Source: Candidatus Nanoarchaeia archaeon
GTDB taxonomy: Archaea; Nanobdellota; Nanobdellia; JAQUSD01
NCBI GenBank assembly: GCA_028715295.1
Contig: JAQUSD010000006.1
Span: 1-33,010, forward strand
Reading direction: 5' to 3'
Length of the DNA: 33,010 nt
The position numbers were made by a program, and so were the translations under genes. The stretch's first letter is position 1. Every line of letters starts with the position of its first letter. This document shows, one piece after another, positions 6,367-16,277 of this stretch. The notes under the pieces were generated by a model that did not search any database, was not told the origin of the DNA, and saw only the letters and a program-made list of their open reading frames with translations.

Positions 6367-6738
6367 ATGAATTCTGAAAAACTTGCTGAGAAACTTTTAA
6401 TGGGAAAGTTAGGAAGTAAAGTCAGAAAACCTGTTTTAAATGTTATAACTGAACCAGTGACGCTTGATGATATCATGGATAGATTAGGTGTATCTGAGGA
6501 AAAAATAAGAAATTCTCAATTTACTGAAAACTGGACAGATTATAGTTTTGAACTTTTAAGACGTAATTTACGCAGTTTCCTCATGATTATGGCTTCTGAT
6601 GGGGCAATTGGGTGGGATGTTGTAGGTATTAAGAGTCCAAGTTATAATACTAAAGATAAATATGGAAGAATTACTGGAACTGGAAATTACACCACTTATA
6701 ATATTTTACCCGATACAAAATATTTTCCTAAAAAATAA
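6367..6738 (+). CDS. Hypothetical protein
   Basis: Intact 123-aa ORF with upstream TATA-like AGATTTATAAG. Confidence 0.6.
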   Translation: MNSEKLAEKLLMGKLGSKVRKPVLNVITEPVTLDDIMDRLGVSEEKIRNSQFTENWTDYSFELLRRNLRSFLMIMASDGAIGWDVVGIKSPSYNTKDKYGRITGTGNYTTYNILPDTKYFPKK

Positions 6739-6774
6739 TATTTATATTCTTTTACTTGTTAATGATTAAATGTT

Positions 6775-9051
6775 ATGCTTAAAAGGTTTTTACCCACCTT
6801 TTTTATAACACTTCTTGCTGTTTCTGCTGTTTGTGCAGGGGAGGACTGTATTGAACAAATAACTGATTCTTGTGAAGGTTACGACTCATGCTACTGCGAA
6901 ATTATTTCAGAATCCCAAATGTGTGAAAGAACTGTCTGTGATGTTTATGAAACTTATTCATGCGGATGCGAGTATTACACATATCAGTGCAACCCCCATA
7001 ATCCAAGACAGGAGATTATTGGATACGCTGGGGTTGGATGTGAAAAACAAAGATGTACTGAGTGGGCTGTTAGAAAGGAAACAGTATGCGATAATCCTTA
7101 TTACAGCGGTTGTGTTGTCTGGACATATAATGATTGTGTGAAATACGAAACCTATTACGGAACTTGTCAGGGAGCACCTATTTATGCTGTTGTTTATGAT
7201 TATGATACTTGTTCAGGTTTTAGAAACTGTGCTTTATGTTCAACAGGAAACTGCATAGAAGCACACGCTGAGGTTTATGAATGTTCAGAAGCTGTTCAGC
7301 AGTGCAAAGCAACATTATGCACTAACCATCCAGAGCCAAGAATTGCAGATGTGAAATATGAAAACAGCAAGCTTGAATTTGATGTTTATAACATACTCCA
7401 CGGAAATACCGCTTATTTCAGAATATCAATTAATGGAGACGAAATTAACTTAAAAACAGACTACGAACCTTATCATGTTTCTTATATAATTGAGAACTAC
7501 AATGTTGTTCCTGTTTATATTTATGACAAAATAGATTTGGACGAATATTATGATGAAATTGTTGTTGGCGAAAGCGGAGAAGTTCATGGAGAATTTGTCT
7601 ATTATCCGTTTATACCAAGGGATGTTCCTCCTTCTCAAATTCCAATACCGCAACGCTACAGCGATTTTATCGGTTTTGGTTTAATTGGAGTCGGGGCAGT
7701 AGCAGGGACCTACTATTTAGTCAATCAGAGAAAAAAGAAAGAAAGCCTGATTAATGATATTATCCAGGGGTTATCAGGAACTCCAAATGGCTCATCAATT
7801 TCTGAAAATATTTCAAACTTTAAAATAGCATTCGGGCTTGGTAGCATCACATCCAGAGCCATTGACTTTGGGGATGGAATACTTGACGGGATTGAACATA
7901 TACTCAATCTTATATTTGGTTTTGGGGAACTTATCAAACAGAATCTTGAAGGTGCTAGGGACAGGTTCCTCCGCTCTTTTATTTCTGGCTTAGCTGCAAT
8001 CCCTGTTATTGGCGCCTTTACTGGATTTGACACACTCCAAGCAATACTAAAAAATATACCTGAGGAATTTGGAACTATTTTTTTAAAAAAGATAATGTAT
8101 CTTGACTTGTGGTTTGATGAAGCAGAAGTTTTTTTCAAGAAAATAATAAAACATGGATATGATGTTGCACAAAAAATATCAGAGATACTTGGACATTCTG
8201 TCAAGCTTTCAAAAATCAGAAACTTCATGGATTCTATTGGAGAAAAGAACTTTTTTAAGATGCTTAAGGAGTTTGATGCAGGAGACATGAAAAAAGTTGT
8301 TGAAATGGATGTCGCATTTGATTTAAGCAAAGGCAATATGGATAATAACATACAATTTTTCACAGGAATGAAAAATAAGTTTAATGAAATTTTTGAAGTT
8401 TTTCACGGGAATCTTGGAAATATAAAAAAGATAGAATTTGATAATCTTGAAAAGGGGATCCTTGGAAATTATAATTTTGACAATAAAATACTTAAAATTG
8501 ACATAAACAAGATTGGAAGTTTTGAAGAGTTTTATGAACTTGTAACACACGAGATTATACATTCTGCTAAGGTTTCAGGAAATGTCAAGATTGGAGATAT
8601 GATTATAAAGTCAGTGGATGATTATGAAGCAATATTTAAGAATTATCTCGGACACCTTGAAGGGCATTATAAATCAGGAGATTTCAATTCCCTTTACAAT
8701 CAGTTCATGGACACAGCAGTCAATAAATTAGCCATGACTAAAAAAGGAGTTGATATTGATGTATGGTATAAAGGCTGGATGAGGAATTATGAAGGTGAGA
8801 TTATGGATTTAAGTAAAACTGTTGATGATACCTTATTTTTTAAAAAATATGTTAAGGACATTATCTCGGACAAAAAAGAATTACTCCCTAAATTAATGGA
8901 AATGCGTATTGTATTCGAAAATCATGGAAACGCAAAATTTGTTGATACAATAAATAAAATTATTGATAATCTCGGAGAACTTTCATCAGAAGCAAATATA
9001 ATAAAAGAGGCATATGAAAGTATTTATAACTCTGTTAGGTGGGTTGATTAA
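6775..9051 (+). CDS. Secreted/membrane-anchored Cys-rich protein with C-terminal zincin-like (HEIIH) domain; candidate toxin or surface metalloprotease
   Basis: N-terminal signal peptide (LKRFLPTFFITLLAVSAVCAG), about 22 Cys in the first ~190 residues, TM segment FIGFGLIGVGAVAGTYYLV, long intracellular or exported tail, and FYELVTHEIIHSAK at nt 8548-8562. Confidence 0.75.
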   Translation: MLKRFLPTFFITLLAVSAVCAGEDCIEQITDSCEGYDSCYCEIISESQMCERTVCDVYETYSCGCEYYTYQCNPHNPRQEIIGYAGVGCEKQRCTEWAVRKETVCDNPYYSGCVVWTYNDCVKYETYYGTCQGAPIYAVVYDYDTCSGFRNCALCSTGNCIEAHAEVYECSEAVQQCKATLCTNHPEPRIADVKYENSKLEFDVYNILHGNTAYFRISINGDEINLKTDYEPYHVSYIIENYNVVPVYIYDKIDLDEYYDEIVVGESGEVHGEFVYYPFIPRDVPPSQIPIPQRYSDFIGFGLIGVGAVAGTYYLVNQRKKKESLINDIIQGLSGTPNGSSISENISNFKIAFGLGSITSRAIDFGDGILDGIEHILNLIFGFGELIKQNLEGARDRFLRSFISGLAAIPVIGAFTGFDTLQAILKNIPEEFGTIFLKKIMYLDLWFDEAEVFFKKIIKHGYDVAQKISEILGHSVKLSKIRNFMDSIGEKNFFKMLKEFDAGDMKKVVEMDVAFDLSKGNMDNNIQFFTGMKNKFNEIFEVFHGNLGNIKKIEFDNLEKGILGNYNFDNKILKIDINKIGSFEEFYELVTHEIIHSAKVSGNVKIGDMIIKSVDDYEAIFKNYLGHLEGHYKSGDFNSLYNQFMDTAVNKLAMTKKGVDIDVWYKGWMRNYEGEIMDLSKTVDDTLFFKKYVKDIISDKKELLPKLMEMRIVFENHGNAKFVDTINKIIDNLGELSSEANIIKEAYESIYNSVRWVD

Positions 9052-9076
9052 AAATGGCTATTATGGTAAAATGTCC
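9001..9076 (+). repeat. Direct repeat copy A (76 bp): 3' end of the HEIIH gene plus start of zinc-ribbon gene 1
   Basis: Identical by eye to 9477-9552: ataaaagaggcatatgaaagtatttataactctgttaggtgggttgattaaaaatggctattatggtaaaatgtcc. Confidence 0.95.
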
Positions 9077-9470
9077 GCGTTGTAATGAAGAATTTGACTT
9101 AATGTCCGTTAAGGAAAGGTATTGTGTAGAATGCAAAAAATGTAATAAAACAGAATGCCAGAATCATCCATTTTCAGTAGATAGCTATGAGTTCTACGAT
9201 AAAGACAGAATAACACATACAGAGTTTTATGATAAGGACAACCGTCTTAAAGATAAAGATGAGGTTCTTGATGCAATAAGAGCAACTTACGGGTATATTG
9301 ATAAAAAAAGCAAATTAGCATTTATAGATTACAAAGGAGCCGCTTTTGTAAAGTGCAAAGAGTGTGACGAAAAAATATATGAACAAGTTTCAGTACACAA
9401 ATGTCCTAACTGTAACGAAGAAATTAGGCACACCTTACCTATATCGTTCCATGTATACACAAGAAAATAA
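9054..9470 (+). CDS. Zinc-ribbon protein, tandem paralog 1
   Basis: MVKCPRCNEEF...YCVECKKCNKTEC...CKECDEKIYE...CPNCNEEI; multiple CxxC pairs. Confidence 0.85.
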   Translation: MAIMVKCPRCNEEFDLMSVKERYCVECKKCNKTECQNHPFSVDSYEFYDKDRITHTEFYDKDNRLKDKDEVLDAIRATYGYIDKKSKLAFIDYKGAAFVKCKECDEKIYEQVSVHKCPNCNEEIRHTLPISFHVYTRK

Positions 9471-9473
9471 TAT

Positions 9474-9527
9474 ATGATAAAAGAGGCATATGAAAGTATT
9501 TATAACTCTGTTAGGTGGGTTGATTAA
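9474..9527 (+). other. Orphan C-terminal tail of the HEIIH protein (MIKEAYESIYNSVRWVD*)
   Basis: Encodes IKEAYESIYNSVRWVD*, identical to the last residues of the 6775-9051 product; in-frame stop just upstream at 9468-9470. Confidence 0.85.
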
Positions 9528-9552
9528 AAATGGCTATTATGGTAAAATGTCC
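9477..9552 (+). repeat. Direct repeat copy B (76 bp)
   Basis: Exact match to 9001-9076, offset 476 bp. Confidence 0.95.
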
Positions 9553-9964
9553 TCATTGTAAAAAAGAATACGATGAATTAAAAATTAAAAACATTAAGTA
9601 TTGTGTAGAATGCAAAAAATGTAATAAAACAGAATGCCAGAATCATCCATTTTTAGTAAAAAGTTACGAATTCTACGATAAAGACAGGATAAAACATACT
9701 GAGTTTTATGATAAGGACAACCGTCTTAAAGATAAAGATGAGGTTCTTGATGCAATAAGAGCAACTTACGGGTATATTGATAAAAAAAGCAAATTAGCAT
9801 TTATAGATTACAAAGGAGCTGCTTTTGTAAAGTGCAAAGGATGTGATGAAAAATTATACGAGCAAAAGTTGGTGTATAAATGCCCTCACTGCGATTCAAA
9901 AATAAGCAGAACAACATACATATTTTTTTCATTACCAGAAAAGAGGACAACAACATGGAGATAA
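9530..9964 (+). CDS. Zinc-ribbon protein, tandem paralog 2
   Basis: Near-identical core to paralog 1 (exact 119-bp block 9222-9340 = 9701-9819), with diverged N- and C-terminal parts. Confidence 0.85.
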   Translation: MAIMVKCPHCKKEYDELKIKNIKYCVECKKCNKTECQNHPFLVKSYEFYDKDRIKHTEFYDKDNRLKDKDEVLDAIRATYGYIDKKSKLAFIDYKGAAFVKCKGCDEKLYEQKLVYKCPHCDSKISRTTYIFFSLPEKRTTTWR

Positions 9965-10032
9965 TATATGATAAAAGAAGCATCGAAAATATTTATGAGG
10001 AACTATATAATTTGATTGAATGGGTGAAATAA
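9955..10032 (+). other. Second, diverged orphan tail remnant (MEIIYDKRSIENIYEELYNLIEWVK*)
   Basis: Ends YEELYNLIEWVK*, resembling YESIYNSVRWVD*; DNA ataatatatgataaaagaagcat is shared with the 9477 copy apart from one mismatch. Confidence 0.65.
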
Positions 10033-10311
10033 ATGGAAAAATGTGAATATTGCAAAAAAGAATATGACATTTTCAAGATTAAAAACATTAAGTATTGTGT
10101 AGAATGCAAAAAATGTAATAAAACAGAATGCATACCAAATTCAAGGGTTGTAAGAGATTTTTCCCAGAAAGATGATAAAGGGGCTTTTGTTAAATGTAAA
10201 GATTGTAACGAAAAGATTTACGAAGAAACCATGATACACACATGCCCACACTGCAAAAAAGAAATAAAAAATGTATTTCCAATATCATTTAGGCCTTTAA
10301 TAAGAAAATAA
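10033..10311 (+). CDS. Zinc-ribbon protein, tandem paralog 3 (internally deleted)
   Basis: CEYCKKEYD..KIKNIKYCVECKKCNKTEC..KGAFVKCKDCNEKIYE..CPHCKKEI; lacks about 45 aa of the core of paralogs 1 and 2. Confidence 0.83.
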   Translation: MEKCEYCKKEYDIFKIKNIKYCVECKKCNKTECIPNSRVVRDFSQKDDKGAFVKCKDCNEKIYEETMIHTCPHCKKEIKNVFPISFRPLIRK

Positions 10312-10384
10312 TAGATTTATTGAGATTTATAAAAATGAATCTTTTAGAAAATATTTAAAACGTTAATTGTCAGCAATTAATTTA

Positions 10385-10928: not shown

Positions 10929-11471
10929 ATGGCTAAGAAGAAACAAAAAAAGAAATCACGCTTTATCATAAGAATAAGAAAAACAGAAATTGATGTTGTC
11001 AAGCTTATTTTAGCAGTTGTTCTTCCTTTAACAGCAGGTTTTATTGGTTCATATTTCACATATCCTGAAATAATATCGTGGTATAACAACCTAAACAAAA
11101 CACCATTAACACCCCCAAACTCAATATTCGGACCAGTATGGACAACACTGTACATCTTAATGGGTGTAGCTTTTTATCTAATCTGGAAAAAAGGAATAAA
11201 AGACAAAATAGCAAAACAGGCAGTTATACTTTTTGTAATACAGTTGGGGTTAAACTCATTGTGGTCAATACTATTCTTTGGGCTTCATAAAATGTTTTTA
11301 GCATTTGTTGAGATTCTTCTTTTATGGGGTGTTATTCTTGCAACAATGCTAAGATTCAGGATGATAGACAAAAGAGCCTTTTATCTCATGATTCCTTATT
11401 TAGCATGGGTTACTTTTGCAGCAGGACTTAATTTAGCAACGTGGATGGCTAATCCCGTGTTCTTATACTAA
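10929..11471 (+). CDS. TspO/MBR family protein with Lys/Arg-rich N-terminal extension
   Basis: WYNNLNKTPLTPPNSIFGPVWTTLYILMGVAFYLIW, LNSLWSILFFGLHK, PYLAWVTFAAGLNLATWMAN. Confidence 0.93.
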   Translation: MAKKKQKKKSRFIIRIRKTEIDVVKLILAVVLPLTAGFIGSYFTYPEIISWYNNLNKTPLTPPNSIFGPVWTTLYILMGVAFYLIWKKGIKDKIAKQAVILFVIQLGLNSLWSILFFGLHKMFLAFVEILLLWGVILATMLRFRMIDKRAFYLMIPYLAWVTFAAGLNLATWMANPVFLY

Positions 11472-15276: not shown

Positions 15277-15304
15277 GTTTAAACTAAAATGGAATTGTTT
15301 AAAC
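15277..15304. promoter_or_regulatory. Paired GTTTAAAC palindromes, 20 bp apart, flanking the start codon of the wHTH-MNT gene
   Basis: GTTTAAAC at 15277-15284 and 15297-15304; TATA-like TATTTATAAA at 15254-15263. Confidence 0.6.
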
Positions 15305-15834
15305 ATAAGTTTACAAGGTTGCAGTCTGAAATATTCAGTCTGCTCTGTATGAAAGCGGGAAGCGAGTTAAACAAGAGTGAAATAGCAAGTATACTAAAAG
15401 TATCACCTACTGCAGTGGCAAAAGCGCTTTCCCTGCTTGAAAAAGATGAACTTGTCACCATAAGAAAGGAAAAAAACATCAAGTTAAGCAGGGTAAGCCT
15501 TAACAGAGATAATAAAAAAGCAATAGAACTGAAACGCGCTGAAAACCTGAAAAACATTTACTCTTCTGGATTAACGGATTATTTGGAAAAGGAACTTGCA
15601 GGAGGCACAGCAATCCTGTTCGGAAGCTATTCAAGAGGGGAAGACACAGATAAATCAGATATTGATATTGCTGTTGTCGGAAGAAAGGATAAGATGCTTA
15701 AGCTTGAGGGATATGAGAATAAGTTAAGCAGAAAAATAAATATAAATTTTTACAGCTCATGGAAAGATATCCACAAATATCTGAAAAATAATATATTAAA
15801 CGGCATATTGATTCAGGGAGGTGTTGAATTATGA
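15289..15834 (+). CDS. wHTH + MNT-type minimal nucleotidyltransferase
   Basis: N-terminal winged helix (NKSEIASILKVSPTAVAKALSLLEKDELV) and GGTAILFGSYSRGEDTDKSDIDIAVVG nucleotidyltransferase motif. Confidence 0.88.
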   Translation: MELFKHKFTRLQSEIFSLLCMKAGSELNKSEIASILKVSPTAVAKALSLLEKDELVTIRKEKNIKLSRVSLNRDNKKAIELKRAENLKNIYSSGLTDYLEKELAGGTAILFGSYSRGEDTDKSDIDIAVVGRKDKMLKLEGYENKLSRKININFYSSWKDIHKYLKNNILNGILIQGGVEL

Positions 15835-16277
15835 AACCACTAAAGGAATTTAAAGAATATCTGGAAAACGGAACAGCAAAAAGAATAAGTCCAAACAACG
15901 AACGCGCAAAAAGCTTAATCAGCGAATCGGAAAGAAAAATACATTCATTAAAAGAAAGAATAGAAAAAATAGGGGTAAAAGACACGAACGCAAATGATTA
16001 TGTTGAATACTGTTATGATATCATAATGCTGTTAATAAGAGCAAAAATGTACAAAGAAGGTGTTACAACTGCCGGACAGGGAAGCCATGAAGCAGAAGTT
16101 GCATATCTTGGGATGCTGGGATTTGATGAAAAAGAAACAAGATTTATGAATGAACTTAGATATTATAGAAATGGAATACTTTACTATGGGACTATTCTTG
16201 ATGCTGAATACGCCTTTAAGGTAATAGAGTTCATAAAAAAGATTCGTGTAAAATTAAAAAAGGTGTTAGCTAAATGA
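15831..16277 (+). CDS. HEPN-domain-like protein, partner of MNT
   Basis: All-alpha protein with LRYYRNGILYYG near the C-terminus and position immediately after MNT with ATGA overlap. Confidence 0.7.
   Translation: MKPLKEFKEYLENGTAKRISPNNERAKSLISESERKIHSLKERIEKIGVKDTNANDYVEYCYDIIMLLIRAKMYKEGVTTAGQGSHEAEVAYLGMLGFDEKETRFMNELRYYRNGILYYGTILDAEYAFKVIEFIKKIRVKLKKVLAK

What the first reader, a model, noticed from the sequence alone, without database searches (positions are those of the whole stretch)
6775..10311. Candidate archaeal polymorphic toxin/immunity-like array: HEIIH effector followed by tandem zinc-ribbon genes
Seen directly: a 758-aa protein with a signal peptide, Cys-rich ectodomain, TM segment and C-terminal HEIIH motif, followed at once by three tandem paralogous small zinc-ribbon genes. 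Each extra paralog is preceded by a short piece of the effector's C-terminus. Established: polymorphic toxin loci (CDI, Rhs, LXG and similar) place a variable toxic C-terminus before immunity genes and carry downstream orphan tip-immunity modules. Inference: the zinc-ribbon proteins are cognate immunity or regulatory partners and the HEIIH domain is the effector. Zinc ribbons would be unusual immunity proteins.
Basis: partly seen in the sequence, partly recalled or inferred. Interest (0 to 1): 0.8.

Follow-up and report, generated by a model that had tools for sequence, protein, structure and literature searches.

The report
Archaeal toxin with zinc-ribbon immunity genes
A tiny uncultured archaeon carries a cell-surface protein ending in a predicted protein-cutting enzyme, followed by three duplicated zinc-ribbon genes that probably protect the cell from it; relatives swap both the toxic end and the protective gene, which is how known microbial toxin-and-immunity weapons behave.

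Summary
A 758-aa protein (6775-9051: signal peptide, 23 Cys, membrane segment, C-terminal HEIIH) is followed after 2 nt by three tandem paralogous zinc-ribbon genes. It is rare in the class. 'Ca. Tiddalikarchaeum' (G040, a different order) has the same C-terminal domain (23-27% identity, E 2e-19 to 6e-24) and, 1 nt downstream, two zinc-ribbon paralogs homologous to those in the window. A model built on three sequences is zincin-like; its best solved matches are archaeal minigluzincins. Tracing the G040 protein through its own order gave the decisive evidence. Four genomes carry the same ectodomain/stalk family. Two G032 paralogs keep near-constant N-termini but have unrelated C-termini, and every intact member there has a different small gene directly downstream. 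That is the polymorphic-toxin pattern; in G040 and G010 it lies next to a type IV pilus locus. I therefore favour a toxin/immunity system with a metallopeptidase effector and zinc-ribbon immunity proteins. The short 'effector pieces' before the extra zinc-ribbon genes are carried-along tandem-duplication ends that include a putative ribosome-binding site; they are not orphan toxin modules. Not shown: toxicity, neutralisation, delivery, and homology of the window's own ectodomain to the family (inconclusive).

The parts
6775..9051 (+). Effector gene, 758 aa: signal peptide, Cys-rich ectodomain, membrane segment, hydrophobic pre-toxin-like region, C-terminal zincin domain
   Evidence: homolog in G040
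6775..6840 (+). Signal peptide (about aa 1-22)
   Evidence: hydropathy; cleavage site inferred by eye
6841..7644 (+). Cys-rich ectodomain (about aa 23-290; 22 of the protein's 23 Cys, aa 25-182)
   Evidence: homology to the G032/G048/G040 ectodomains inconclusive
7666..7722 (+). Membrane segment FIGFGLIGVGAVAGTYYLV (aa 298-316), followed by RKKK
7879..8022 (+). Hydrophobic stretches aa 369-416 (..SGLAAIPVIGAFT), resembling the Gly-rich hydrophobic segment before the G040 and G010 C-terminal domains
   Evidence: pre-toxin role is inference
8290..9048 (+). C-terminal zincin-like domain (aa 506-758), conserved in G040 and, more weakly, G010
   Evidence: model pLDDT 63.6, pTM 0.63, top Foldseek hits are zincins
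8548..8562 (+). HEIIH zinc-binding motif (aa 592-596); HExxH invariant in the three relatives
9054..9470 (+). Zinc-ribbon paralog 1 (138 aa), 2 nt after the effector stop; candidate immunity protein
9474..9527 (+). 17-codon mini-ORF: duplicated effector tail carrying AGGTGG upstream of ZR2
9530..9964 (+). Zinc-ribbon paralog 2 (144 aa), 78% identical to ZR1
9955..10032 (+). 25-codon mini-ORF: diverged effector tail carrying GGGTGA upstream of ZR3; its TAA abuts the ZR3 ATG
10033..10311 (+). Zinc-ribbon paralog 3 (92 aa), lacks the 46-aa middle insert, as do the G040 zinc ribbons

Best explanation
This is a polymorphic-toxin-type effector/immunity locus of an uncultivated Nanoarchaeia (DPANN) archaeon. 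The 758-aa protein is exported by its signal peptide and anchored in the membrane, with the Cys-rich ectodomain outside. On contact with another cell its C-terminal HExxH metallopeptidase domain is delivered into that cell and cuts an essential protein. The zinc-ribbon proteins, encoded directly downstream, bind the domain in the cytoplasm of the producer and kin and keep it inactive. Duplication of the zinc-ribbon gene gave extra immunity variants. Shown: anatomy, tandem duplication, conserved pairing of domain and zinc ribbons, zincin-like model, and swapped C-termini and partners in the homologous family. Inferred: toxicity, zinc ribbon as inhibitor, contact-dependent delivery (possibly pilus-linked in relatives), and target.
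For: Anatomy and duplications. The C-terminal domain recurs in G040, a different order, at 27% identity, E 2e-19, immediately followed by two zinc-ribbon paralogs homologous to ZR3 at 33% identity, E 5e-7. The zinc-ribbon family is found with strong scores only in those two of 378 class genomes; the two weaker hits opened were not adjacent to any such effector and looked like ribosomal-type zinc ribbons. G040 and G010 share the stalk/membrane region (E 2e-18), but the G010 C-terminal domain is diverged and its downstream overlapping partner is not a zinc ribbon. A stalk profile finds three more copies in G032 and one in G048. G032 C46 and C2 are up to 90% identical in 50-residue windows of the N-terminal part and fall to about 12-20% over the last 150 residues. 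Their partner genes are unrelated to each other and to the zinc ribbons. Partner genes lie within -10 to +10 nt of the effector stop in all intact loci. Zincin: A8 model and Foldseek hits to jannalysin, selecase, abylysin, SprT and IrrE; weak DUF6782 metallopeptidase and SprT-like hits for the G010 domain.
Against: Toxicity and inhibition are untested. The window's own ectodomain cannot be shown to be homologous to the family (57 of 1000 Cys-fixed shuffles score as well; only one of five pairwise tests beats all shuffles). No second copy with a swapped C-terminus was found in the window's own genome. Predicted single-pass topology would place the enzyme in the producer's cytoplasm. Foldseek E-values are above 0.001 and TM-scores are modest.
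Confidence: 0.7

Rival explanations
1. Membrane-anchored receptor protease and its substrates. The ectodomain senses a signal, the cytoplasmic zincin cleaves zinc-ribbon regulators, and gene expression changes, as in ImmA/ImmR or IrrE/DdrO pairs.
For: Signal peptide, one clear membrane segment and RKKK after it put the enzyme inside the cell. Zinc ribbons are often nucleic-acid binding (general knowledge). IrrE-like zincins are among the Foldseek matches.
Against: Homologous proteins keep the N-terminus but exchange the C-terminal domain for ones without HExxH and the partner for unrelated families, unexpected for a fixed sensor pathway. Presence is sporadic.
Confidence: 0.15
2. Surface protease whose zinc-ribbon neighbours are unrelated housekeeping genes; the adjacency is accidental.
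For: Small gene-dense genome; zinc ribbons are common.
Against: The same domain-zinc ribbon order, 1-2 nt apart, recurs in another order at 27% identity, and the zinc-ribbon family is otherwise not found.
Confidence: 0.07
3. Host-directed symbiosis effector: the same architecture used by the DPANN symbiont against its archaeal host, with zinc ribbons protecting the producer, rather than for competition between kin or rivals. This overlaps with the best explanation and differs in the target.
For: 'Ca. Tiddalikarchaeum' is inferred to depend on a host and has type IV pili (PMC8561730). In G040 and G010 the effector genes sit beside the type IV pilus operon.
Against: The window copy is not near recognisable pilus genes. 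Partner and tip variation is more typical of inter-strain competition.
Confidence: 0.25

Closest known systems
Polymorphic toxin systems with metallopeptidase tips (Tox-MPTase1-5, HopH1-like, PVC-metallopeptidase; Zhang et al. 2012, PMC3482391)
   Same: Exported multidomain protein, C-terminal HExxH zincin toxin candidate, small gene directly downstream, conserved stalk with exchanged tip and exchanged partner in relatives
   Different: No RHS, filamentous haemagglutinin, LXG/WXG or PVC parts found. The Tox-MPTase rows in that paper's table name no immunity family, whereas here a conserved zinc-ribbon partner exists. Archaeal, with Cys-rich ectodomain and membrane anchor
Archaeal polymorphic toxins (Makarova et al. 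2019, mBio e00715-19; paper not held, known here only through PMC8416519 and my own memory)
   Same: Archaeal, variable C-terminus, dedicated downstream partner; none experimentally characterised as of 2021 (PMC8416519)
   Different: DNases and RNases are reported as the commonest archaeal tips (PMC8416519); this tip is a predicted zincin. Whether Tiddalikarchaeales loci were already listed there could not be checked
VARTIG modules of Thermococcales (PMC8416519)
   Same: Surface protein with Ig domains (Ig-like segments are also suspected in the G040 and G048 relatives), hypervariable C-terminus, variable downstream genes
   Different: No toxin domain was recognised in VARTIG; a search of that paper found no mention of zinc or metalloprotease
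Minigluzincins (jannalysin/selecase, abylysin) and SprT-like peptidases
   Same: Predicted strand-strand-strand, HExxH helix, hairpin, helix order; best solved matches by Foldseek
   Different: Much longer helical C-terminal half; third metal ligand not identified (D616 and D646 are the invariant Asp candidates, E702 and E709 the invariant Glu candidates); no sequence match in the PDB

Membership tests
Polymorphic toxin systems | Exported or surface N-terminal part | tested here: met
   Signal peptide, Cys-rich ectodomain, membrane segment; same plan in G040, G048, G032 C47
Polymorphic toxin systems | Constant N-terminus with exchanged C-terminus among homologs (tested in the homologous family) | tested here: met
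   Met for the homologous family in Tiddalikarchaeales
Polymorphic toxin systems | The window protein's own N-terminus belongs to that constant N-terminal family | tested here: inconclusive
   Profile and pairwise scores not clearly above Cys-fixed shuffles; the proven link is the C-terminal domain and zinc ribbons shared with G040
Polymorphic toxin systems | Partner gene immediately downstream, matched to the tip type | tested here: met
   Zinc ribbons follow the shared zincin tip in both window and G040; unrelated partner families follow the other tips
Polymorphic toxin systems | C-terminal toxin domain | tested here: inconclusive
   Zincin predicted; activity and toxicity unknown
Polymorphic toxin systems | Downstream orphan tip-immunity modules (common, not universal) | tested here: not met
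   Only 17-25 codons of effector tail precede ZR2 and ZR3, without the catalytic motif
Polymorphic toxin systems | Partner protein neutralises the toxin | not testable with these tools
   Needs expression or binding assay
CDI, Rhs, LXG subtypes | FHA/two-partner, RHS repeat or LXG domain | tested here: not met
   No such Pfam match in window effector or relatives
Zincin / minigluzincin peptidases | HExxH on a helix after a beta sheet | tested here: met
   HExxH invariant in three relatives; predicted strands 47-51, 60-62, 67-71 then helix 78-96 bearing it; Foldseek zincin hits, none below E 0.001. Predicted, moderate confidence
Zincin / minigluzincin peptidases | Third zinc ligand | tested here: inconclusive
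   Invariant D616, D646, E702, E709, but the alignment is uncertain after the HExxH region and the geometry is not resolvable in the model
Zinc-ribbon proteins | Paired CxxC zinc knuckles | tested here: met
   KCxxC and CPxC knuckles conserved in all but one position across the five paralogs; many sub-threshold zinc-ribbon Pfam hits

The most novel reading that the evidence does not exclude
A previously undescribed, pilus-linked polymorphic toxin system of episymbiotic Nanoarchaeia, with Cys-rich membrane-anchored stalks, exchangeable zincin and other tips, and zinc-ribbon proteins as a new class of metallopeptidase immunity protein that may act by masking the active site or competing for its metal.
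Probability: 0.35. Interest if true: 0.8.

Novelty: new variant of a known kind. Interest (0 to 1): 0.62.

Why it matters
Archaeal polymorphic toxins are predicted but had not been experimentally characterised as of 2021 (PMC8416519). DPANN archaea are thought to live in contact with hosts, and the molecules they use are mostly unknown. A toxin family with exchangeable tips and dedicated partners, next to a pilus operon in some members, gives concrete genes to test. Zinc ribbons as inhibitors of a metallopeptidase would be a new immunity mechanism.

Tried and rejected
Orphan tip-immunity reading of the tail fragments: rejected, they are tandem-duplication ends. In ZR1/ZR2 the tail codons carry AGGTGG and in ZR3 GGGTGA close to the start; this is a plausible reason they were kept, but only 11 of 34 window genes have such a motif (background 16%), so it is a suggestion. 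Viral or plasmid origin: no relatives found (the effector domain in IMG/VR, phages and plasmids; the zinc ribbons in IMG/VR). Anti-phage defence: no PADLOC match of note. Full-length homology of the window and G040 N-termini: not provable. The G085 match is a small HExxH protein weakly like DUF6782, outside the family. The first fold with two sequences was too poor and its Foldseek hits meaningless. My reading of the G032 tips as CdiA-CT-like and EndoU-like nucleases came from motif recall and found no Pfam, NCBIfam, PDB or plasmid support, so it is not claimed. Makarova 2019 was not held.
Full report
WHAT IS THERE. The described features are real. One search gives the 758-aa ORF 6775-9051 and three zinc-ribbon ORFs 9054-9470, 9530-9964 and 10033-10311, all on the + strand. 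The effector has a signal-peptide-like start, 23 cysteines between residues 20 and 182, a membrane segment at residues 298-316 followed by RKKK, and further hydrophobic stretches at 369-416. The HEIIH motif is residues 592-596. The zinc-ribbon genes arose by tandem duplication: 300 nt at 90% and 98 nt at 95% identity are shared by copies 1 and 2, and a 99-nt block by all three. ZR1 and ZR2 differ mainly in their two cysteine-rich ends (29 replacement against 12 silent codon differences there, 3 against 6 in the middle). ZR3 lacks a 46-aa middle insert.

THE EFFECTOR PIECES. The duplicated unit begins inside the last codons of the effector (about 8996), so each extra zinc-ribbon gene carries an effector tail: a 17-codon mini-ORF before ZR2 and a diverged 25-codon mini-ORF before ZR3. 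These contain AGGTGG or GGGTGA shortly before the zinc-ribbon start. I read them as carried-along translation signals of a tandem duplication. They are not displaced toxin tips.

RELATIVES OF THE WHOLE PAIR. Among 141 related genomes only G040 matched the effector, over residues 454-746 (27%, E 2e-19). The G040 1048-aa protein also has a signal peptide and a Cys-rich ectodomain. One nucleotide after its stop come two tandem 94-aa zinc-ribbon paralogs, homologous to those in the window. A zinc-ribbon profile run over 378 class genomes gave strong matches only in these two genomes; the two outliers I opened had no such effector beside them and looked like ribosomal-type zinc ribbons. The paralogs within each genome resemble each other most, so duplication probably happened separately in the two lineages. 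No relatives of the domain were found in viral, phage or plasmid collections.

THE POLYMORPHIC TEST. In G040 the effector lies in a co-directional run of genes with a type IV pilus ATPase, two T2SSF-family membrane proteins and pilin-like proteins. I followed that locus in the other members of its order. G010 has at the same pilus locus a homolog (truncated by the contig end) that shares the stalk/membrane region (23%, E 2e-18) but has a diverged HEYAH domain and a different, non-zinc-ribbon partner whose start overlaps its stop. G032 has no effector between the corresponding pilins. A profile from these three proteins then found three effector copies in G032 and one in G048. Two G032 copies have nearly constant ectodomain, stalk and membrane region and then unrelated C-termini: identity falls from up to 90% per 50 residues to about 12-20% over the last 150. 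A third is cut by a contig end just after the membrane segment and is 87% identical to the first over 229 residues. G048 has an extended repeat region in its ectodomain and a different HELKH tip. Downstream partners are, respectively, a 205-aa protein, three tandem paralogous small proteins, and a 142-aa protein; none is related to the zinc ribbons or to another locus's partner. All effector genes with an intact 3' end have their partner within about 10 nt of the stop. Constant stalk, exchanged tip, exchanged adjacent partner and duplicated partners together are the hallmark of polymorphic toxins (features as in Zhang et al. 2012, PMC3482391).

IS THE TIP A ZINCIN. No family library recognises the window domain. 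With three sequences the model improved from pLDDT 49 to 64, pTM 0.63. Its order is helix, three strands, helix with HExxH, short hairpin, helices. Best solved matches are the archaeal minigluzincins jannalysin/selecase and abylysin, then a SprT-family DNA-protein crosslink protease; viral matches include IrrE-like, M48 and SprT-like peptidases, several at probability 0.9 or more. E-values are weak, so this is good but not final support. Independently, the G010 tip weakly matches DUF6782 (putative metallopeptidase) and SprT-like models.

MECHANISM. Best reading: an exported, membrane-anchored, contact-type effector whose metallopeptidase tip enters a target cell, with zinc-ribbon proteins as cytoplasmic immunity. 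Shown: anatomy, pairing, family-level exchange, zincin-like model. Inferred: delivery, toxicity, target, inhibition. The single clear membrane segment would leave the tip in the producer's cytoplasm, which fits a need for cytoplasmic immunity but leaves delivery unexplained; the hydrophobic stretches at 369-416 could be a translocation segment. The main rival is a receptor-protease with zinc-ribbon substrates; exchange of tips and partners in the family argues against it.

LIMITS. The window's ectodomain could not be proven homologous to the family: the profile score was reached by 57 of 1000 shuffles that kept cysteines in place, and only one of five pairwise comparisons beat all 2000 shuffles. 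The link from the window to the family therefore runs through the tip and zinc ribbons shared with G040. Nucleases are the commonest archaeal polymorphic tips according to PMC8416519; the survey paper itself (Makarova 2019) was not available, so prior listing of the Tiddalikarchaeales loci cannot be excluded.

Noticed in passing
L050 (G032:C46), L051 (G032:C2), L052 (G032:C47): Three paralogous Cys-rich surface proteins with near-constant N-termini and, where intact, unrelated C-termini, on short contigs (C47 and C46 overlap), flanking coiled-coil genes; an apparent polymorphic toxin array broken by assembly.
   Followed up: yes
L051:533-1528 (-): Three tandem small paralogous proteins with a hydrophobic N-terminus (158, 73, 100 aa) follow one G032 effector, a further case of duplicated partner genes in this family.
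   Followed up: partly
L008:1258-7054 and L039:2032-6535, L052:1-3125: Large coiled-coil-like proteins accompany the effectors in G040, G010 and G032 (in G040 and G010 near type IV pilus genes, with a small protein ending in a membrane helix); weakly similar to each other; role unknown.
   Followed up: partly
window 6718-6746 and 10328-10356: AT-rich imperfect inverted repeat (29 nt, 79%) flanks the effector plus zinc-ribbon cassette; may be chance in such AT-rich DNA.
   Followed up: no
window 15289-16277: Winged-helix plus nucleotidyltransferase gene followed directly by a 148-aa gene, possibly related to the MNT/HEPN genes reported as conserved in DPANN (PMC6393860).
   Followed up: no
window 10929-11471: TspO/MBR family membrane protein just downstream of the locus.
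   Followed up: no
window 6367-6738: 123-aa gene upstream of the effector with weak helix-turn-helix similarity; could be a regulator.
   Followed up: no
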